From the NCBI GenBank assembly GCA_903837525.1, contig CAILUU010000020.1, positions 37,061-101,060 of the forward strand: 64,000 bases of DNA, in the 5' to 3' direction. Below are positions 54,830 through 63,910 of the stretch, piece by piece. The notes below the pieces were generated by a model. That model made no database searches. It was not told where the DNA came from and worked only from the letters and a program-made list of their open reading frames with translations. Made by a program: the position numbers and the translations under genes. Numbering within the stretch: position 1 is the stretch's first letter; every line of letters begins with the position of its first letter. The stretch is from an uncultured Bacteroidota bacterium (GTDB taxonomy: Bacteria > Bacteroidota > Bacteroidia > Chitinophagales > Chitinophagaceae).

Positions 54830-54888
54830 CAAAATACTATTTTTAGCGTTAATTGAGTTAAGGGTAGTTCAAAAAACGTATAACTTAG

Positions 54889-55163
54889 GTAATCAATAAT
54901 TGACACTTATGTAGTATTACATTTATTCCATTTAAAAATAACTCTCCATTGATTATTAATTCTGATAGAGTAATAATTTTTGAGATTGCCTTTCAACTTC
55001 TCCAAACGATTGGATGGTGGAATCATTAAATCATTAACATCAACAGAATTATTTAACATTCTCAACTTCCTTCTTCCTATTTCTTAAATTTCTGTTGGCA
55101 GTTTTACGCCTGAATACCTTCCCAAATTTTTTGTGTATCCTTATCTCTAAATGAAACAATCAT
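54889..55163 (-). pseudogene. HigB toxin (RelE superfamily), decayed
   Basis: From ATG 55163 on the minus strand: MIVSFRDKDTQKIWEGIQ, then after a frameshift near 55107 KLPTEI, an in-frame TAA (55084-55086), EIGRRKLRMLNN, PPSNRLEKLKG, YYSIRINNQWRVIFKW, a TAA at 54907-54909, and SIIDY. This follows the whole 90-residue HigB mRNA-interferase pattern (PP-NRLE-L-G, YSIRIN-QWR). No HigA antitoxin remains downstream, where lysA ends. It is an old toxin-antitoxin remnant. Confidence 0.7.
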
Positions 55164-55212
55164 ACTAACTAATTAGGTTACTAACGCTAAAGATAAGTAT
55201 TTTTCAAGAAAT

Positions 55213-55244
55213 AAAAAATGCCTCAGAATTCCCTCTGAGGCATT
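55213..55244 (-). terminator. Terminator of the C14/CHASE2 operon
   Basis: Read on the minus strand: a 10-bp stem (AATGCCTCAG with CTGAGGCATT), an 8-base loop and a T-run (55213-55218). It shares the ATGCCTCA stem with the terminator at 31451. It lies about 200 bp beyond the stop of the caspase gene. Confidence 0.75.
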
Positions 55245-55442
55245 AAATCATGTGTTATTTTACAAAACAATTATTGTTTTATAAAACAACATGCGTACTC
55301 TTAGTAGGGGAATTATTTAACCAAATATTGAATGATCTCAATCGATTTAGTAAAACAAAAATCAATTAAAAGGACTTTTAAATTATATCATTATAGTGGA
55401 ACTACAGAGTAGCTAATAGGTAAAATGTAAACAATTTTGGAA
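55245..55442. other. A/T-rich 3' region of the caspase gene
   Basis: No gene is seen. An AAAACAAT/ATTGTTTT hairpin (55264-55280) precedes the terminator in transcription order and may assist it. Confidence 0.35.
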
Positions 55443-58400
55443 TTAAAATCCCCAATCCACCTCCATGGTTTCCTGGCGTGATGTTGGTTTTTGTTTGCCA
55501 TTAGTGATTTCTGTTACGCGCTGTTCGGCGTATTGTTTGAGTTGATTAACCGTTAGTTTATTTTTATCATTTTGATGTTGCGTTAAATATTCCAAGATGC
55601 TGTATGTGAAAGCGCCGTTGCTAATGGGTTTGCCGTTTATATAAACCGCACCACCTTCTAATGCACTTTGTTTTCCTCCTGCTGCAGAAACAACTGTTGC
55701 GCCTGTTTGATTGTTTACATTCACAAAAAGCTCCATCATGGTTTCAAAACTATTTTTTTTATTTTGCGATGAATCTGAAACCGATTCAATTTCAACTCCT
55801 TTGGCACCTTGTTTAATGGCAAGATCTTTTGAATTGGCCAATCCGTTGTTATCAGATTTTTCATTTTCACCGCTATTGCAAGCATCCAGCAACAATAGTT
55901 TTTTTCGAGCGGGAATGCCATCCAACAAACCTTGTAAATCTTCGTAAGCCAGGCCGTTTAGTTCTGGATGATTAAAATCCACATTGTTCATAGCGAGATA
56001 AAAATTATTGTTCTTATCCAGCAAACCATGAGAGCTGCAAGAAATGATCACTTTATCTTGTTCGGTGGTTTGTTGTAAAAAAGATTTCAATTTGAGTACA
56101 TTTTCTTTGGTAACGTCCTTGTTTTTTAAAATAATTGTTTTGGTATTTTTATCATTCGCCAACAGATTTCCCAAATCATTTACATCCTTTACACAATATT
56201 GCAAATTGAATTTCGAGGTTGCAAAACTATCCACCCCAATTCCAATGTAAAATGTTTTTGATACAATAGGTTTTGCAGGTTGATATTGAACATACACTGG
56301 ATATCTAAAATTTTCCAACCCCAAATCATTCATCACCGAAACCTGAATCTTATTGTTTCCTTCGGTTAAATTTAATGAGATGTCTTTTTCAAATTGATTT
56401 ACTTTTTCCGAAATAGAAATGCCATTAGATCCGTAAACAGGCACTTCATTTACATATACATTGTAGCGACGTAAGTCGTGTTTGGCATCTGAAGCTTTAA
56501 AATGGAAGTTGATTTTACCTGAAGTATTGTTATAGACTATATCATCCGCATTTACAATTTCAGCATCGGGAACTTCGATTGCATTGCTGGATGTTGTAGT
56601 ATCCAAACCTAAACGAACCATCCTTTTTACCCAAGCCTCTTTATATTGTTGGATTAATTTTAAATCGGGACCGCCTGCAAAATATTTACCGATGCTGTCG
56701 AGCACAATATCAGGCCTGTTGTAAATTGGATCGAGCTGATCAAAACCGATGACTTTTAAACTGGGGGTTACATAATGCAACAATTTGCTTGCATCTTTGG
56801 AGCACATGTAGTAAGGAGAGTTGGGGAGTTTGATGAGCCAGTTGTTGTTTTCTAGTATGAATCTCTCATAAACCGGCTTCCCCGATTCGCTATCCCAGAT
56901 TACTGTTTTATAATTATCATCAATTGTCAATATGGTATTGGTCTTTGGCAATAAATAAAAAAACAAAATTGTCCCATTATTCGAAATTCTTGATTTTTCA
57001 GTGTCTTTTTTGGTATCCCAATTCACAATTGTACTATCATTTATTTTATTGAATAAAAAACCCCCATCATCACTGTAAATTTGACCCATTTGATATTCTA
57101 AATTATTCAATGCTGGTAATATTTCTTTTCCTGTTTCTACATCGAATTGTCGAACACCTTTATGATTGTATTTGCATGCATACCATTTTTTGTTATCAGA
57201 GGAAAAATAAATTGGACCACAATTATCCATTGGAATACTGTATTTTATTTTATAGTTACTTGATTCTAAAACATCAATTTCGGAATCTGTAATGATAAAA
57301 ACATTTTGGTCATCCGGTGAAGTAATTACTGTACGAATATTTTCTTTTTTATACTCAAATTCTTTGTAAAATTCTCCTTTTAAGAGTGATCCAAATTCTA
57401 CATGATCTATAACTTCTCCAACAACTATTTCTTCCATTTTAATAGTGTCATAAATAGTCAAAACAACCTTATCACCTTTTTTATTAATTAAAATTGATTC
57501 GCAATTTCTTTCATATTTTTTTGTAAAAGAAGGCTCCGTCAAGTCGTTTAAATAATATATTGAGGGTCTTGAAATACAACCAGTATGATTTTTTTCTTGT
57601 GTTAATAAGACGTACTTATTGTTTTTACTGAATTCAGCTTTAACAATAACATCATGCTTTCCTATTATGCTTTTTATTTGTTTACCAGAAACTACATCCC
57701 ATATAATAGCAGTATTATCGTAAGAGCCATTTATTAAATAATGGTCATCAGAGCTAAATTCGGCAGGTGTGCTCATCATACGATTTCCTTGAAAGAACTG
57801 TTTTATTTTACCGGTAGTTAATTCCCATAATTGGATAATATTATCACCTTTAATTTCAGTGCTATTAGTTCTATTTGGGACACTTACCACATATTTTTTA
57901 TCGTTGCTAATAGTCGAAAATTCAACCCAAATTGCTTTCTTTTTACAAGTCCTTAATAACCCGTTTTGTAAATCAAGTTCATTTATAACTGTTCTGTCTG
58001 ACACCCAAGATAAATATTTACCATCTTTACTATAAGTTGGCGTATTATCAAATTCAATTGCGAAACAACCTATTTTCTTTTTATTAATTATATCCCAGAC
58101 ATTTAATGAGTCATGGGTATTGCTTAAACTGGAATAGGACGAAATTGTATAAACAAATTTAGAATTGGAGCCAAAGTGACCTTCATTGCCTTTTAATATC
58201 ATGTACAAATAGCCAGTTTTAAAGTCATACAAATTTGAAGTATCAAAGGAAGTACTTATTAATAATAAATCGCTATTTACATTGAACGATGTAGGGCTTT
58301 TAAAACCTTCATCTATTGAATAACTTTTTTGAAATGTACCTTTTTTAGCCAAATTCCAAAGTCTCGCAGTATTGTCGAATGATGAGCTAAGAAGATAGGT

Positions 58401-59084
58401 ATCATCCGAATTAATTTCAAGATTAAATACTCTATCCAAGTGTCCCTTTAATTCTTGTAAAACAACACCTTTAAAAACATCCCATACAATTATACTCTTG
58501 TCTTCTGTTATGCTTATCACTTTTTTACCACCATGATCAAAAATAGCTTTATTAAATAATTTTGAATCTAATTTTAATACATTAAGTAACTTTCTATCTC
58601 TTATATCAAAAAGCTTTATTTCCTTTTTTTTATTTGAAATAATAAGAAATTGATTTCTATTTGAGTTTATACTAATTTGTTCTATTTCTTCATTAATTTC
58701 AAAATATTTTTTTCTCCCAGAAATGATATTTAATAAAAAGACAGGATTTTTATTAACATTTTCAAAAACTATGATAACCGATAAATCATTTATATTTTTT
58801 TTAAATTTATTTGGCAGGAAATACACACTTTGTAAATTATGTTCAAAGCTTAAAGACTTAATTTCTTTGAGTGATTTCCTATCCCATATCTTCAGTGTAT
58901 GATCACTTATCGATGCAATAAAAAGCCCATCGTAGCTATAGTCTATTGAACGGATTCCATAAGAGTGCCCCAACGGCAACACTAACTTCAAACTATCCTG
59001 CGCTTTGCAAATTTGAAATAGCGCAATTGAAATAATAAAGAATAGAACACCTTTCATTTTCCTGATTTTTGTTTTTTTCTTCAT
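55443..59084 (-). CDS. Exported WD40-type propeller fused to a caspase-family (C14) protease
   Basis: A 1213-residue protein. A hydrophobic signal peptide (about residues 11-28, ending CKAQ) would export it. Residues about 35-800 are WD40-like repeats, with clear LKIWDRK, IIVWDVF, ARLWNLA, IIQLWELT and AIIWDVV repeat ends. A beta linker follows (about 850-930). The last 272 residues (from about 942) are a C14 caspase-like domain: catalytic His in SSHG (about 1019) and Cys in LLLDACNSGE (about 1069). The AAGGKQSALEG segment probably lines the S1 pocket. The dyad is intact. It starts inside the stop of the 142-residue gene (4-bp overlap). The substrate is unknown. Confidence 0.88.
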   Translation of the reverse strand: MKKKTKIRKMKGVLFFIISIALFQICKAQDSLKLVLPLGHSYGIRSIDYSYDGLFIASISDHTLKIWDRKSLKEIKSLSFEHNLQSVYFLPNKFKKNINDLSVIIVFENVNKNPVFLLNIISGRKKYFEINEEIEQISINSNRNQFLIISNKKKEIKLFDIRDRKLLNVLKLDSKLFNKAIFDHGGKKVISITEDKSIIVWDVFKGVVLQELKGHLDRVFNLEINSDDTYLLSSSFDNTARLWNLAKKGTFQKSYSIDEGFKSPTSFNVNSDLLLISTSFDTSNLYDFKTGYLYMILKGNEGHFGSNSKFVYTISSYSSLSNTHDSLNVWDIINKKKIGCFAIEFDNTPTYSKDGKYLSWVSDRTVINELDLQNGLLRTCKKKAIWVEFSTISNDKKYVVSVPNRTNSTEIKGDNIIQLWELTTGKIKQFFQGNRMMSTPAEFSSDDHYLINGSYDNTAIIWDVVSGKQIKSIIGKHDVIVKAEFSKNNKYVLLTQEKNHTGCISRPSIYYLNDLTEPSFTKKYERNCESILINKKGDKVVLTIYDTIKMEEIVVGEVIDHVEFGSLLKGEFYKEFEYKKENIRTVITSPDDQNVFIITDSEIDVLESSNYKIKYSIPMDNCGPIYFSSDNKKWYACKYNHKGVRQFDVETGKEILPALNNLEYQMGQIYSDDGGFLFNKINDSTIVNWDTKKDTEKSRISNNGTILFFYLLPKTNTILTIDDNYKTVIWDSESGKPVYERFILENNNWLIKLPNSPYYMCSKDASKLLHYVTPSLKVIGFDQLDPIYNRPDIVLDSIGKYFAGGPDLKLIQQYKEAWVKRMVRLGLDTTTSSNAIEVPDAEIVNADDIVYNNTSGKINFHFKASDAKHDLRRYNVYVNEVPVYGSNGISISEKVNQFEKDISLNLTEGNNKIQVSVMNDLGLENFRYPVYVQYQPAKPIVSKTFYIGIGVDSFATSKFNLQYCVKDVNDLGNLLANDKNTKTIILKNKDVTKENVLKLKSFLQQTTEQDKVIISCSSHGLLDKNNNFYLAMNNVDFNHPELNGLAYEDLQGLLDGIPARKKLLLLDACNSGENEKSDNNGLANSKDLAIKQGAKGVEIESVSDSSQNKKNSFETMMELFVNVNNQTGATVVSAAGGKQSALEGGAVYINGKPISNGAFTYSILEYLTQHQNDKNKLTVNQLKQYAEQRVTEITNGKQKPTSRQETMEVDWGF

Positions 59085-59509
59085 TTAATATTTTTCTCCA
59101 CCACCCCAATAATTAAATCAATCATCCCATCCAAATCAACTTCTTTTCCTTCAACACTTGACTGATTGTATTTCTTTTGATTTTTTAGAAAGATGATGTC
59201 GCATTTAATTTTGCTTGAGTTTACCTCATATTTTAATTTAATGGCATTGGCACTGCTGGTTTCTTTTTCTATATAAATGATTGGAGCATCAATCCCTCTT
59301 GATGTAATTTTCATCAACTTCGTATTTAATTTATCTTTTAGTCGCAAGCCACCTTCATCTGTAGATTTATCTTCTGCACTAATGCACAAAACAACTGGTT
59401 TTTCTTTAGCCAACTGAATACTATTTTTTACAACATCATCAACCATTCCTATTTTAATATTGGCAGTTCCGAAAGGTTGAGCATTTTGTTTTAACCCTAA
59501 ATTTTCCAT
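59081..59509 (-). CDS. Hypothetical protein coupled to the caspase gene
   Basis: A 142-residue soluble protein with no signal peptide, built of alternating beta and alpha patterns (PVVLCISAEDKS, GIDAPIIYIEKE, IKCDIIFLKN). I recognise no family; it could be a Rossmann-like or adaptor fold. Its stop overlaps the caspase gene start (ATGA type), so the two are translationally coupled and probably made in proportion. Its cytoplasmic look contrasts with the exported neighbours. Confidence 0.65.
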   Translation of the reverse strand: MENLGLKQNAQPFGTANIKIGMVDDVVKNSIQLAKEKPVVLCISAEDKSTDEGGLRLKDKLNTKLMKITSRGIDAPIIYIEKETSSANAIKLKYEVNSSKIKCDIIFLKNQKKYNQSSVEGKEVDLDGMIDLIIGVVEKNIK

Positions 59510-59642
59510 GGTGTTTTTTAATAACGCTTATGTTAAGGTAGTGTTTATTGGCTCACCCCCTCGGGGATCCGTTTCGCTATACTACTCCACGAAGGGGTAT
59601 ATTACCAGTGTTGCATTTATTACTTGAACTTACAAACGTTTA

Positions 59643-60785
59643 TTATTTGTTGAATGGCAATTTCTTCCACCCTTTTTTTAAAAGATGCGTCACCGGTTTA
59701 TACAACTCTAAAATCCCACTAATAAATATGATCATAGTCACCCAATAACCCAAATCTATTTCAATACCTTTTTTCATCAATAATACATAAAAGAATAACA
59801 TCAAAATACCAGATATTAGTATTACCAATCTGAAGGTTAGTTCATAATAAAATTCGTGATACTCAATCAAATAAAAGAAAATGTAGAAAAATAAAAGGAA
59901 AACAAACAACGTAAAAAAATGATTCCAAAAAGCAGATGGTTCTGATATTAAGTTGTCATTTAGCAACATCGCAATGGCTATAGCATGAATTCTCAATCCG
60001 CTAATAATGGTATAAAGTCCATCATTTTCTGCATATCCAGCATTGGTTATTTTATGCTTATCCTCAGCACTATCTAATGCGCCTATTAATACAATTTTGT
60101 TTTTTAATTCTTGGGCAAATGCATTTGTAGAATCATTCACAATATCCACTGCTTTTATTTCTATAGGAAAATCTACCGGTATGTACGTGATATTGAAGGA
60201 GGTATCCTCTTTTATTTTTTTTAGCGCAGACAATGACGGATTGTAAATGCTTGCCACCTTTGCTGAAAAAGACATCAAATTGCCATTGGATTTACTTTTG
60301 TTCAAGATTGATCTTATCGGATGGCCTTCTCCTGTGTTGCCAAAATTCACCAACCCTTCTACAGCCTTAGATCCATCTTTAGCAAAAAATGAATGGGCTA
60401 TATTTTTTCCAGAATCAACACAAGCAAATACCGTTGAAGCTGATGATTCAGCATAGTTTAAATAATCAAGTTGTAAAGGACTTGGTGGTTCCTCTTCTTT
60501 AAACAATACATCTACTCCTACAACTTTTGGTTGGTATTGTTGTACTTTTTTAAACAAATCCATCAACTGTGCTCTTTTGCAAGTATCAATGTCTATCAAT
60601 ACAATGTTGGCTATCGGTTTTATTTCATTACGCTGGATGCTGGAAAAATAAATATCTTTCATTTCCACTTCTTCACTTACCGATTTTAATGAACTTATGA
60701 AACTAAAATCCACTTGAAAAATGAATTGAATAAACAACAATGACAAAAAGGTGAAACATAAAGGCCCCAGAGATTTCCTAATCAT
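59643..60785 (-). CDS. CHASE2-domain membrane sensor without output domain
   Basis: A 380-residue protein with an N-terminal membrane anchor (about 8-24), an extracytoplasmic CHASE2 domain (about 45-275, with IVLIDIDTCKRAQL, VVGVDVLFKE, KIVLIGALDSAEDKH and SGLRIHAIAIAMLL) and three C-terminal membrane segments (about 282-306, 314-337 and 345-362). CHASE2 usually senses envelope signals for cyclases, kinases or phosphatases; here nothing follows the last helix. It would need to signal through a partner. It starts 3 bp from the FecR-like gene. Confidence 0.85.
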   Translation of the reverse strand: MIRKSLGPLCFTFLSLLFIQFIFQVDFSFISSLKSVSEEVEMKDIYFSSIQRNEIKPIANIVLIDIDTCKRAQLMDLFKKVQQYQPKVVGVDVLFKEEEPPSPLQLDYLNYAESSASTVFACVDSGKNIAHSFFAKDGSKAVEGLVNFGNTGEGHPIRSILNKSKSNGNLMSFSAKVASIYNPSLSALKKIKEDTSFNITYIPVDFPIEIKAVDIVNDSTNAFAQELKNKIVLIGALDSAEDKHKITNAGYAENDGLYTIISGLRIHAIAIAMLLNDNLISEPSAFWNHFFTLFVFLLFFYIFFYLIEYHEFYYELTFRLVILISGILMLFFYVLLMKKGIEIDLGYWVTMIIFISGILELYKPVTHLLKKGWKKLPFNK

Positions 60786-60788
60786 ATT

Positions 60789-61673
60789 TTATTGCGTTAC
60801 TTCGTTTAAAAAAGCATTTTTTTGTTCTATAAAATCCATGTCATTATCGGATTGCTGAATCAACTGATTGTAGCAATCCAACGCATCCACATTAAATCCT
60901 TTTGATTCAAAAAATAACGCCTTTGCTAATAATAGATTCCTATTGTCATCATTTTTAAAATCCGCTTCTATTTGTTGAATTTCTTTTGCAATGATTCTCT
61001 TTTGTTGTTCGGTTGCAATTGTCAATTTCACTCGTTCTGGTTTAGTGCCCTTATTGATTTTTAAATACACTTCATCGCTGCTTTTTAGATCGCTTGGCAA
61101 CTCAATCGTTTCTCCATTCTTTATTTGAAAATTCGCGTTGACATTTTCATTTATAATCAATGCAATATCTACAACCGCATTAGAATCAATAATGCTAGAA
61201 TTAAAAACTAGTGTAATTTTTTTCTGAAAAAGAATGGTTGTATTGTAATTCGGGAACATTAGTATTTTTGGTGCACCTCCCCTCGTTACCACTCCTGCTG
61301 TTTTAAAATTAATGTTGTCGTGGTAGGATTTTCCTTTTTCAATAAAGCGGCGAATGATCAATGACATCACATTACTCATTTCACCAGGCGTTTTGTTAAA
61401 AGAAGCGATGATTTTAGCTACATCATATTTACCTGCTTTTGTAAACTCACGCATTTTTTTATCAGCAGTGATAAAAAATAATTTTGAATTTGGCGATAAA
61501 ACTACAATCGTTTTTGGAGTAAGCACATCGTAAGACTTAAGTTGACGGCTAACTTTCCCAGATTTCAATTCCACTTTACCCGAAGTGCAATAAACGGTGA
61601 TATTTTCGCTTGCTTGAGCGAATAGGTTAAAGGAACCCAATAAGAAAATAATGGATAAAAAAAATTTCAACAT
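60789..61673 (-). CDS. Exported FecR-like protein with C-terminal TPR-like helices
   Basis: A 294-residue protein with a signal peptide (about 1-19, ending LFAQ). A FecR-like beta domain follows (about 25-75: SGKVELKSGKVSRQLKSYDV then SPNSKLFFIT). The middle is beta-rich. The last 65 residues (AKALFFESKGFNVDALDCYNQ) look like one TPR pair. The start at 61673 is supported by the signal peptide and a -7 box at 61695-61702; a longer frame to 61769 overlaps the protease gene. FecR-like proteins often read an envelope cue. The CHASE2 gene is next. Confidence 0.7.
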   Translation of the reverse strand: MLKFFLSIIFLLGSFNLFAQASENITVYCTSGKVELKSGKVSRQLKSYDVLTPKTIVVLSPNSKLFFITADKKMREFTKAGKYDVAKIIASFNKTPGEMSNVMSLIIRRFIEKGKSYHDNINFKTAGVVTRGGAPKILMFPNYNTTILFQKKITLVFNSSIIDSNAVVDIALIINENVNANFQIKNGETIELPSDLKSSDEVYLKINKGTKPERVKLTIATEQQKRIIAKEIQQIEADFKNDDNRNLLLAKALFFESKGFNVDALDCYNQLIQQSDNDMDFIEQKNAFLNEVTQ

Positions 61674-61694
61674 TAAAGTAGGTTTTTGCTTTTT

Positions 61695-61702
61695 CAAATA
61701 TA
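61695..61702 (-). promoter_or_regulatory. -7 box before the FecR-like gene
   Basis: On the minus strand TATATTTG, an exact TAnnTTTG, 21 bases before the ATG at 61673. It may be an internal promoter of the cluster. Confidence 0.4.
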
Positions 61703-61743
61703 GGCAATAATCATACTTTAATATTATACTAATAATAATTATT

Positions 61744-63270
61744 TTATAAAGCAGTATTCTCGTATTCAAACCAATGATCTAAATTGGCTTCAGAAGCAAA
61801 TTTGTATTCTTTCAAACTTTCTAATTCAACTTCTGTAAATGTCTTATTGATATTTTTTTTTGTTGAGGTTTCTTTATACCAAATATTGAAAGATTGCAAA
61901 CCATTTCCATTCGTTTTAGGACTAATAATGTCATTAGAATAAAGATCAAACAATACAAATTTTCGATTCCAATTTTTGTTAGCGGCCTTTGCATCTTTAG
62001 TATCAATTTTTAACTCTGTATTTTCAGTTAAAATAATAGTTTCATTACCTCTCGTGGTCAATTCTTTAGTTGTTAATTTAGTTGATACAAACTCATCATT
62101 TTTCCCTGGTGTTATTTTGAAATATTTGATTTTGTTTTGAGCATAACTATAATCTAAAAGTTCAAATTTCTTTTGTGGTTCATAACCAAAAGATTTTCCG
62201 TCTTTACTTTCATCACTCCAAATTATTTTATTTTTTTCTGCAGAAGCAATCCAATAAATGTCGTTTTCTTCTCTAGCGCTAATATTGAAATCATAAAAGC
62301 CTCCTTTAGGAACACAAAACCAACCTTTTGATAACCACTTCCCTGTTATTTTCATTGTTACGGCTAAGTAACAGTTATATGGTGTTTTGTTGTATACCCT
62401 AAAATATTTTGCCTGACTTAATATTTCTTTATTTTCATTAATTGCTTTTTCTTTTGGACGTAAACAATATCCATTTTTAATAATGTCTATGTTTTCATAT
62501 TTAAGCCAGAATTCTCCATTTTTACCCCATTTGTCACCCCAACTATTTTTAACCAAAAAAGCACCATTTGCTATACTGTCATTAAACCCTATAATACACA
62601 TAGCATGGCCATTAGAAGAATTCATACTTCCCCGCTTACCATTCCAAACACCGTTATCAAAATTAGAAGCATTATCCCAACCGTTCTTAAAAGTATTCAC
62701 ACCAATTACAATTGGATAATTTTCCTTCAAAGCATACTTCAATTGATTTACACTAATATCAAGTGGATCAAATGCATATAATTTCCCGGATTCGTGTTTA
62801 TTAGAAGCGGGCTCAAAACTGCATTTGTTTTTACTAGAATCAAATTTTTCACAGCCACTTTCCTTAAGTAAATTTAATGCAGAAAATATATGATTACCTC
62901 CAACACAAGGACTTTCATTTTCGGAGGCTTTTAATCTGTTATGCAAACATAAAGGAGAAAACGTTTCAGTAGAACCGATTTCGCCTTCTGCTCTTTTTAC
63001 AATGGTAAGCGCGTAGTATGCAGCAGCCCAAGACACACAAGATCCAACATTTTCTTGATCACCTGTTCTGGGAACCAATTTTAATAAATCATAATTAACT
63101 GGTAGTTGATTGCCGATACTTGAAAATATTTTTTTTTGGATAAGGGAAGTATCAATGTTTTCAATTATATACCCTTCAGCGTTTTGAGAAAAAGAAAATA
63201 AAGGAAATGACATAAAAATCAATAAGCCTAAAAGTTCCTTTTTCTTGAAAAGACATTTAATAAATAACAT
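61744..63270 (-). CDS. Exported papain-family (C1) cysteine protease
   Basis: A 508-residue protein with an N-terminal hydrophobic signal (about 12-29, ending SFSQ). The C1 domain spans about 55-265: oxyanion Gln in GDQENVGSC (about 72), nucleophile Cys78, His in NGHAMCIIGF (about 222) and Asn in VKNSWGDKWGK (about 242), with GCEKFDSSKNKC supplying disulfide cysteines. There is no long propeptide before the domain. The C-terminal 240 residues are of unknown fold, rich in Lys and Asn. It probably acts in the periplasm or at the surface. It precedes the FecR-like gene. Confidence 0.87.
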   Translation of the reverse strand: MLFIKCLFKKKELLGLLIFMSFPLFSFSQNAEGYIIENIDTSLIQKKIFSSIGNQLPVNYDLLKLVPRTGDQENVGSCVSWAAAYYALTIVKRAEGEIGSTETFSPLCLHNRLKASENESPCVGGNHIFSALNLLKESGCEKFDSSKNKCSFEPASNKHESGKLYAFDPLDISVNQLKYALKENYPIVIGVNTFKNGWDNASNFDNGVWNGKRGSMNSSNGHAMCIIGFNDSIANGAFLVKNSWGDKWGKNGEFWLKYENIDIIKNGYCLRPKEKAINENKEILSQAKYFRVYNKTPYNCYLAVTMKITGKWLSKGWFCVPKGGFYDFNISAREENDIYWIASAEKNKIIWSDESKDGKSFGYEPQKKFELLDYSYAQNKIKYFKITPGKNDEFVSTKLTTKELTTRGNETIILTENTELKIDTKDAKAANKNWNRKFVLFDLYSNDIISPKTNGNGLQSFNIWYKETSTKKNINKTFTEVELESLKEYKFASEANLDHWFEYENTAL

Positions 63271-63319
63271 ACTACTTTTTTTGATTATTATCCTTTTTGA
63301 TTACAAAAATCGCTTTATT

Positions 63320-63910
63320 TTACAATTGCTTGTACATTATTTTATTTGCAAAATCTCCGTATGTTCTGTAAAAAAAGCTATTATTTATATTTTTTTTGAA
63401 GAAGCTTTCCAATTCTTTTGATGTAGAAATTTCTTTATTATAATTTATAACATCTTTAATAATAAAATTATCTTCTTTTAAATCTAATCGTTGAATGGTA
63501 TATTCACCATCTTCTGAACTGTCATCAATTTCTTCTTCTTCAGATTCGCTTTCCATAAGTTTTTTACATTGTAAAAAATAAGTGTCATTTATTTTAATAA
63601 TGAAGCCTTGATAAACATTTGAATAATAATTGCGATATTCTGAAGAAGATTTACTATAATCAAAAACTTGCATGGTAAATCCCCTTTCTCCATTTTTTCT
63701 TATAATGACATAATCATTAAAAGTTTTCTTTTCTTCATTACTTTTGCTTTCTTCCATAATCCAGGTACCAAATAAATTAGATGGACAGTTTACCCTGTAT
63801 TCAGATAAAGATAATTTAGTGGTGAATTGAGCGCTAACGCTAAAACAAATAAAAAAGCAAAATAAAAATGTTGCAATTAGATTTTTAATGTTTGTATTTA
63901 GAGTGTACAT
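63320..63910 (-). CDS. Secreted hypothetical protein
   Basis: A 196-residue protein with a signal peptide (about 1-27, ending VSAQ). The mature part has a FGTWIMEES segment typical of lipocalin-like secreted proteins, Ser/Glu-rich stretches (SEEEEIDDSSEDG) and no Cys except two. No named family is recognised. It is the first gene of the run leading to the C1 protease, 49 bp away. The window ends 90 bp upstream, where no gene is seen. Confidence 0.6.
   Translation of the reverse strand: MYTLNTNIKNLIATFLFCFFICFSVSAQFTTKLSLSEYRVNCPSNLFGTWIMEESKSNEEKKTFNDYVIIRKNGERGFTMQVFDYSKSSSEYRNYYSNVYQGFIIKINDTYFLQCKKLMESESEEEEIDDSSEDGEYTIQRLDLKEDNFIIKDVINYNKEISTSKELESFFKKNINNSFFYRTYGDFANKIMYKQL

What the first reader, a model, noticed from the sequence alone, without database searches (positions are those of the whole stretch)
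55443..63910. Candidate envelope system: C1 protease, FecR-like, CHASE2, unknown and WD40-caspase in one operon
Six same-strand genes with tight spacing (3 bp, 4-bp overlap) bring together two cysteine proteases of unrelated clans, a CHASE2 sensor and a FecR-like protein, almost all with signal peptides. FecR-like and CHASE2 proteins do meet in other bacteria, usually with a cyclase or kinase as output. Here the output slot seems to be a caspase-family protease. I know of no described system with this set. A signal-to-proteolysis circuit at the cell envelope is inference.
Basis: partly seen in the sequence, partly recalled or inferred. Interest (0 to 1): 0.8.

Follow-up and report, generated by a model that had tools for sequence, protein, structure and literature searches.

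The report
Caspase wired to a membrane sensor
One run of six genes in this bacterium encodes a membrane protein with a CHASE2 (sensor-type) domain, a partner protein, two unrelated cysteine proteases and a loose piece that matches the tail of other caspases; the set is predicted to work outside the cytoplasm as a sense-and-cut system, and parts of it sit side by side again in related bacteria.

Summary
The six genes are there; C1, CHASE2 and WD40-caspase hold. 'FecR-like' fails: Pfam FecR matches none of these genes in 25 genomes; the gene encodes an Ig+TPR protein whose best solved match is the MtxA C-terminal domain. The 'unknown' 142-residue gene (B) is collinear with the C-terminal end of WD40-caspases in two other genomes, and a caspase with a similar tail lies directly before CHASE2 in a third. 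The full set was not seen at any other CHASE2 locus read, but two sub-sets recur: CHASE2 plus partner with a caspase within 6 kb (13 of 14 family loci, expected 0.2; caspase or CHAT at 9 of 44 rows in the class, expected 1.1), and C1 protease within 10 kb of a caspase (10 of 141 rows, expected 1.3). Shared descent inflates these figures. Relatives of the window's caspase also occur in genomes without CHASE2, so the caspase is not tied to it; 33 of 42 class loci have no such protease. All 78 caspase domains aligned keep His and Cys. A signal-to-proteolysis circuit at the envelope is my preferred reading; activation, substrate and ligand are untested, and B's lack of an export signal is unexplained.

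The parts
63320..63910 (-). F: 196-aa protein of unknown family with a signal-like start, first gene seen; contig ends 90 bases upstream
   Evidence: its profile hits only itself in the 102 loci read; no database search was made with it
61744..63270 (-). E: papain-type C1 cysteine peptidase (residues 66-259) with a signal-like start and a C-terminal part of about 240 aa of no clear family
   Evidence: Pfam PF00112 55.8 bits; catalytic Gln, Cys, His and Asn present; C-terminal profile hits only itself in 102 loci, but a 68-residue match to residues 428-495 lies in G155 (E 3.7e-6)
60789..61673 (-). D: partner protein, small N-terminal beta domain + Ig-like domain + TPR-like helices (MtxA C-terminal-like); the ORF opens at 61769 but the signal peptide seems to start at M33
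59643..60785 (-). C: CHASE2 membrane protein with a short C-terminal tail (about 19 residues after the last predicted helix) and no cytoplasmic output domain
   Evidence: Pfam PF05226 65 bits; hydropathy
59510..59642 (-). 133-nt gap between C and B with a GC-rich hairpin; the 89-nt stretch around it is single copy in the genome
   Evidence: fold z -1.95; no Rfam match
59081..59509 (-). B: 142 aa, stand-alone homologue of the C-terminal end of WD40-caspases; no signal peptide
55443..59084 (-). A: WD40-repeat protein with a signal-like start and a C-terminal caspase (C14) domain, 949-1207; His and Cys present; no tail of its own
55217..55244 (-). terminator-like hairpin (12 pairs) followed by a T run, after A

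Best explanation
The locus encodes a CHASE2 membrane protein, an Ig/TPR partner, a WD40-caspase, a papain-like protease and a detached caspase-tail protein, and it is likely a sense-and-cut system predicted to act outside the cytoplasm. Shown: the domains, catalytic residues in place, signal-like starts, and the repeated placement of CHASE2 + partner beside caspase or CHAT proteases, and of C1 beside caspases. Inferred: the CHASE2 protein (N-terminal helix, large outer domain, C-terminal helices, no cytoplasmic output domain) detects a condition in the envelope; the partner, built of two kinds of protein-binding domain, docks on it and on the protease; the WD40 propellers hold the caspase until assembly or cleavage switches it on; C1 and caspase act in one cascade, one activating the other or both cutting the same envelope targets. 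B would supply in trans the tail that A lacks and that some other WD40-caspases carry in cis; this last step is the weakest, since B has no export signal.
For: D next to CHASE2: 12 of 14 family loci, 34 of 42 class loci (profile iterated on these same loci, and in L051, L057 and L071 the gene is short, 146-237 aa). Caspase within 6 kb: 13 of 14 family loci (expected 0.21 for about 8 kb each side). Class, 44 CHASE2 rows in 41 genomes: caspase at 5 (expected 0.34), CHAT at 4 (expected 0.73), 9 against 1.07, Poisson 2e-6, uniform placement assumed and shared descent not corrected. A tenth, L074, was not counted: caspase, a weak CHASE2 hit under Pfam's cut-off (23.8 bits) and a weak D hit in one overlapping same-strand run. 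On the CHASE2 tree (52 rows) the label 'caspase or CHAT within 6 kb' needs at least 10 changes, gains or losses, and the neighbouring caspases fall in several clades: WD40 with C-terminal caspase, N-terminal caspase of about 1100 aa (TPR seen in L020), and two groups of 667-759 aa. Family co-occurrence: caspase in 14 of 15 CHASE2 genomes against 69 of 180 others, Fisher 3e-5. C1 near caspase: 10 of 141 C1 rows within 10 kb, expected 1.3. Dyad: His and Cys in 78 of 78 caspase domains; C1 Cys 20 of 20, His 19 of 19 and Asn 18 of 19 aligned. Signal-like start: 46 of 46 caspases of CHASE2, C1 and own-genome loci whose 5' end is present (4 more are cut), against 19 of 29 in the other caspase loci and 550 of 1251 other ORFs, so the test is crude but the contrast is clear. 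B is collinear with three WD40-caspase ends (E 3e-12, 2.6e-7, 3e-6), and a caspase directly before CHASE2-D in L072 has a similar tail (hhalign probability 83 against at most 2.1 for 59 other ORFs and 1.8 for 20 shuffles).
Against: 33 of 42 class CHASE2 loci have no caspase or CHAT within 6 kb, so proteolysis is not the only use of the pair. 10 of 17 members of A's own caspase clade come from loci without CHASE2. Eight of the 13 family hits (L019, L020, L022-L025, L027, L028; L029, cut, is likely a ninth) share one divergent arrangement, so 13 is not 13 events. The full gene set was seen in the window only. Gene order D then CHASE2 is the reverse of every other same-strand pair. B has no export signal while A does. 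The window's CHASE2 is on a long branch, at most 23% identical to any other row. No expression, binding or activity data; topology rests on hydropathy.
Confidence: 0.5

Rival explanations
1. Proteases that merely share a transcript: A and E would be nutrient-scavenging or surface-processing enzymes, and CHASE2 + partner an unrelated envelope pair in the same operon.
For: Caspases of A's clade occur in genomes without CHASE2; most CHASE2 + partner pairs in the class have other neighbours, several of them housekeeping by eye.
Against: Neighbourhood counts above expectation in two draws, with different caspase architectures and with CHAT, another clan CD protease.
Confidence: 0.25
2. Host defence or programmed cell death device, like the caspase-bearing conflict systems of multicellular bacteria, using CHASE2 as trigger.
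For: EACC2-caspase proteins with C-terminal CHASE2 are described in a paper on conflict systems (PMC8195603, passages); metacaspase-CHASE2 fusion in Trichodesmium (PMC3501461, passages); NCBIfam's EACC1-type caspase is the nearest named model.
Against: No NTPase, TIR or nuclease among the six by Pfam (effector-associated domains were not tested apart); no PADLOC match; EACC1-type model 65 bits against a cut-off of 140; proteases predicted to be exported.
Confidence: 0.12
3. CHASE2 + partner is an envelope scaffold or assembly factor, not a sensor; the proteases process the proteins that it assembles.
For: No cytoplasmic output domain; partner has Ig and TPR-like domains, often binding domains.
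Against: In other phyla CHASE2 sits on cyclases and kinases, next to MtxA or FecR-domain proteins (PMC4439547 and PMC5192318, passages).
Confidence: 0.13
4. For B alone: it is not a working subunit but the 3' remnant of a second WD40-caspase lost from the operon.
For: B ends where those caspases end and begins just before the last strand of the caspase domain; tandem WD40-caspases with such tails exist in L119; no signal peptide.
Against: Same 142-aa length and 91-94% identity in three variants (a fourth, 118 aa, differs at its end), near the 94-95% of one partner-protein variant, though another is 99%, and it is not known which come from one strain; codon-position GC like the neighbours. No DNA of the variants was available, so dN/dS was not measured.
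Confidence: 0.4

Closest known systems
MtxA + CHASE2-adenylate cyclase gene pair of magnetotactic bacteria (PMC4439547, passages read)
   Same: Ig + TPR partner protein encoded next to a CHASE2 protein; D's best solved structure is the MtxA C-terminal domain
   Different: Output there is a cyclase on the CHASE2 gene; here CHASE2 has no cytoplasmic output and the neighbours are proteases with signal-like starts
LysM-FecR + CHASE2-histidine kinase operon (BiofilmReg, PMC5192318, passages read)
   Same: Exported partner next to a CHASE2 sensor
   Different: Output is a two-component system; partner there has a FecR domain, which D lacks by Pfam
Metacaspase-CHASE2 fusion in Trichodesmium (PMC3501461, PMC2853523, passages read) and EACC2-caspase-CHASE2 proteins (PMC8195603, passages read)
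   Same: Caspase and CHASE2 coupled
   Different: One polypeptide, with the caspase predicted in the cytoplasm (stated so for Trichodesmium); here separate genes, a caspase with a signal-like start, and a third partner
Nostoc cluster of two WD40 genes + CHASE2 + DUF928 (PMC5587647, passages read)
   Same: WD40 and CHASE2 genes side by side
   Different: No caspase or papain-like protease named in that passage; DUF928 relation to D not tested

Membership tests
Peptidase C14 (caspase/orthocaspase) | Pfam PF00656 above cut-off and His-Cys dyad | tested here: met
   50.8 bits against 21.4; His and Cys columns present
Peptidase C1 (papain) | Pfam PF00112 above cut-off; Gln, Cys, His, Asn | tested here: met
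   55.8 bits against 20.7; all four residues in E
CHASE2 | Pfam PF05226 above cut-off, between N- and C-terminal membrane helices | tested here: met
   65 bits against 26.3; helices by hydropathy
CHASE2 sensor enzymes | cytoplasmic output domain (cyclase, kinase) | tested here: not met
   380 aa, about 19 residues after the last helix, only CHASE2 in Pfam
FecR | Pfam PF04773 match | tested here: not met
   52 FecR rows in 16 of 25 genomes, none at a D gene; none in the window's genome
MtxA | Ig + TPR fold of 4z29 and Pfam MtxA_C | tested here: inconclusive
EACC1-associated caspase | NCBIfam NF047832 above cut-off | tested here: not met
   65 bits against 140
Known anti-phage systems (PADLOC-DB 2.0.0) | any model match among the six genes | tested here: not met
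   0 matches at E up to 1
EACC2-caspase-CHASE2 | EACC2 domain fused to caspase | not tested
   no EACC2 model was looked for

The most novel reading that the evidence does not exclude
These bacteria have a caspase signalling apparatus that lies wholly outside the cytoplasm: a CHASE2 + MtxA-like receptor pair that repeatedly takes on exported clan CD proteases (caspase or CHAT) as output, joined here to a papain-like protease in a two-protease cascade, with a caspase tail split off as a separate subunit.
Probability: 0.35. Interest if true: 0.82.

Novelty: new variant of a known kind. Interest (0 to 1): 0.62.

Why it matters
In the papers I saw, the CHASE2-caspase protein whose topology is given (Trichodesmium) has its caspase in the cytoplasm. 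A version with exported proteases would be signalling across the envelope by cutting, with no kinase or cyclase, and would give a testable case for what CHASE2 proteins without an output domain do. It also gives a lead on a caspase tail domain that is found both fused and free.

Tried and rejected
FecR for D: rejected. DUF928 for D: thought of from memory and a passage in PMC5587647, not tested. E's C-terminal part as kin of the small secreted 'NYTGYYVDVYVDG' proteins near some caspase loci: hhalign probability 1.2, dropped; its DUF1036 match is E 0.03, under cut-off. My first view that A's caspase clade is CHASE2-specific came from fetching by CHASE2; one search corrected it. The 20 loci are no neutral control for neighbourhood: I chose caspase genes of 1098-1403 aa, 17 of the 20 in genomes without a CHASE2 hit, and left out loci already fetched for C1, so 0 of 20 with CHASE2, D or C1 is mostly by choice; they show only that A's clade exists without CHASE2. 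L079 and L080 looked like the same trio, but their middle genes match the D profile poorly (probability 4 and 61, the latter over 66 columns) and their CHASE2 genes do not match the A1 profile (probability 0.4 and 1.3); they are in no count except the trees, and their label was set by hand. Structure of B: pLDDT 47.7, not used. A FlgO/TolB-like guess for the tail: Pfam gave nothing above cut-off. PDB sequence search with A's last 285 residues: no match. No FecR-like structure was listed for D; not used as evidence. Rows dropped before the tree: L076, L077, L078, L073, L066, L067, L068 (other type or poor match), L027, L029 (contig ends). L074 and L075 had no CHASE2 hit by my profile. The caspase list was cut at 150 of 218 matches, so the C1-caspase count is a lower bound. 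My 'signal-like start' is a hydropathy threshold that 550 of 1251 other ORFs also pass.
Full report
What is there. Six ORFs run on the minus strand from 63910 down to 55443. In transcription order: F (196 aa), E (508 aa, Peptidase_C1), D (326 aa as opened, 294 aa from the methionine that seems to start the signal peptide), C (380 aa, CHASE2), B (142 aa), A (1213 aa, WD40 repeats and a C-terminal Peptidase_C14 domain). Two junctions are tight (3 bp; 4-bp overlap), the others are 49, about 70 and 133 bp. The only terminator-like hairpin on this strand lies after A (4 such sites on both strands against 3.1 expected, so weak evidence). The contig ends 90 bases before F. The genome is 2.17 Mb in 55 contigs. 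Genomes bear codes, not names: 'the family' below is code f1, 'the class' the window's class. That these are Bacteroidota is my recognition; the one named relative, Solitalea longa, is Bacteroidota, Sphingobacteriaceae.

The 142-residue gene. A search of 5.8 billion proteins gave, besides itself, only four, at 91-96% identity. But a profile of B, run over loci fetched for their caspases, hit the C-terminal ends of three WD40-caspases in two genomes: L114_5 (E 3e-12), L119_3 (2.6e-7), L119_2 (3e-6). The match is collinear over nearly all of B: its first 25 or so residues match the last strand of the caspase domain, the rest a tail of 128-130 residues. A fourth caspase, L072_10, has a tail of 129 residues, groups with those three on the caspase tree (SH-aLRT 99), matches the B profile at probability 83 (59 other ORFs at most 2.1, 20 shuffles at most 1.8; the plain profile search at E 10 did not list it), and lies directly upstream of CHASE2 and D on the same strand. 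So tail, caspase and CHASE2-D meet in a second, distant genome. A and the 16 others of its clade lack the tail (3-6 residues after the caspase domain). Whether B works as a subunit or is the remnant of a lost caspase is open; its lack of an export signal speaks for the remnant, its conservation for function.

Do the genes go together elsewhere? In 195 genomes of the family, 13, the window's included, hold a relative of C, at 14 places. D lies next to it in 12; of the two misses L027 is cut by the contig end, L018 has another gene downstream. A caspase lies within 6 kb in 13 (expected 0.21); the miss, L018, begins 0.3 kb from a contig end. Eight (or nine) of these share one arrangement, a divergent caspase of about 1100 aa, so they are not independent. 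In 395 genomes of the class, Pfam CHASE2 gives 44 rows in 41 genomes. I fetched all of them: 42 have a CHASE2 by my profile, 34 of these have D next to it, 5 a caspase and 4 a CHAT protease within 6 kb, against 0.34 and 0.73 expected from the caspase and CHAT density of these genomes for the 44 rows. The other 33 have neither. One of the two rows my profile missed, L074, has caspase, weak CHASE2 and weak D genes in an overlapping same-strand run; it is not counted. Solitalea longa (L032) has three caspases before CHASE2 and D. Across a wider draw of the phylum CHASE2 is in 137 of 395 genomes, and most listed proteins are 700-900 aa, another type that I did not study. On the CHASE2 tree the protease label changes at least 10 times (many weak branches; the window's row is on a long branch). 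Caspases at CHASE2 loci fall into several clades. CHASE2 and caspase also co-occur by genome in the family (14 of 15 against 69 of 180).

C1 and caspase. 141 C1 rows were found in 96 of 195 family genomes; 10, the window included, lie within 10 kb of a listed caspase, against 1.3 expected. I fetched 18 stretches, 9 of these and 9 others. In L083, L084, L086, L087 and L090 C1 is directly followed on the same strand by a WD40-caspase; L087, L089 and L090 have two or more; L083 continues with another caspase and a CHAT protease. Those WD40-caspases form a clade of their own, apart from A. The window thus joins two themes: its caspase is of the other WD40 clade, yet it has a C1 gene.

Further caspase loci. 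Twenty more stretches had no CHASE2, D or C1 hit, but this is mostly by choice: 17 lie in genomes without CHASE2 and loci near C1 were left out. What they show is that A's clade is not CHASE2-bound: 10 of its 17 members come from these. They also differ in export: 19 of 29 caspases there with a 5' end pass my crude signal test, against 46 of 46 at the CHASE2, C1 and own-genome loci (other ORFs 550 of 1251).

Mechanism. Shown: His and Cys in 78 of 78 caspase domains, C1 Cys in 20 of 20; signal-like starts as above; CHASE2 proteins with D beside them end within 63 residues of the last predicted helix. Inferred: sensing by CHASE2, docking through the Ig/TPR partner, activation of the caspase, a cascade with C1, envelope substrates. 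Nothing here measures activity, contact or transcription.

Against print. Full-text searches of the held library: CHASE2 + caspase + FecR (0 papers), CHASE2 + caspase + bacteria (7), CHASE2 + CHAT domain (0), metacaspase + periplasm + Bacteroidetes + signal peptide (4), MtxA + magnetotaxis (4), CHASE2 + FecR (3), EACC1 + caspase + STAND (2), caspase-like + papain-like + secreted + operon + Bacteroidota (0), peptidase C14 + CHASE2 (4), and four of five terms on secreted orthocaspases (0). In the listings, abstracts' beginnings and passages that I saw there was no description of this set. Passages were read in PMC3501461 (its operon section in full), PMC8195603, PMC5587647, PMC2853523, PMC6426788, PMC4439547 and PMC5192318; the others I saw in listings only. 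Known: a metacaspase-CHASE2 fusion in Trichodesmium with the caspase predicted inside; EACC2-caspase proteins with CHASE2; and the remark in PMC3501461 that many metacaspase-associated domains seem extracellular. Most subscription papers are not in the library, so absence is not proof.

Verdict. A recurring gene partnership with a plausible but untested envelope proteolysis role; one label corrected, one unknown identified, the full set seen in this genome only among the loci that could be read.

Noticed in passing
window 54830-55445 (-): Downstream of the caspase gene, two reading frames together look by eye like pieces of a HigB-type toxin-antitoxin gene with a frame break (family recalled, no family search run).
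   Followed up: no
window 59510-59642 (-): Gap between CHASE2 and B holds a GC-rich hairpin, single copy in the genome, no Rfam match; possible attenuator or deletion scar.
   Followed up: partly
L083 3585-15453 (+): C1 peptidase, WD40-caspase, second caspase and CHAT protease in one tight same-strand run: four cysteine proteases of two clans in a row.
   Followed up: partly
L074 8441-17985 (-): Weak D hit, weak CHASE2 hit and several caspases (three of 700-1018 aa, one more cut by the stretch end) in one same-strand run; the caspases inside the stretch were found by my profile, not listed by Pfam C14.
   Followed up: partly
L026, L030, L032, L036 (12238-12642, 10056-10460, 6805-7254, 7440-7847): Small proteins of 134-149 aa with signal-like starts and a shared 'NYTxxxVDVYVDGxYxG'-like motif beside caspase/CHASE2 genes in four genomes.
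   Followed up: partly
L031 8681-10744 (+): The window's genome has a second caspase with a signal-like start (687 aa) on another contig, of a clade that sits near CHASE2 in L026 and L030.
   Followed up: no
L072 7412-7914 and 16062-16421: The L072 CHASE2-caspase locus is flanked by what look by eye like transposase pieces, so such loci may move.
   Followed up: no
L119 1437-10804 (+): Two tandem WD40-caspases with B-like tails followed by a third caspase, in a genome that has CHASE2 on another contig.
   Followed up: partly
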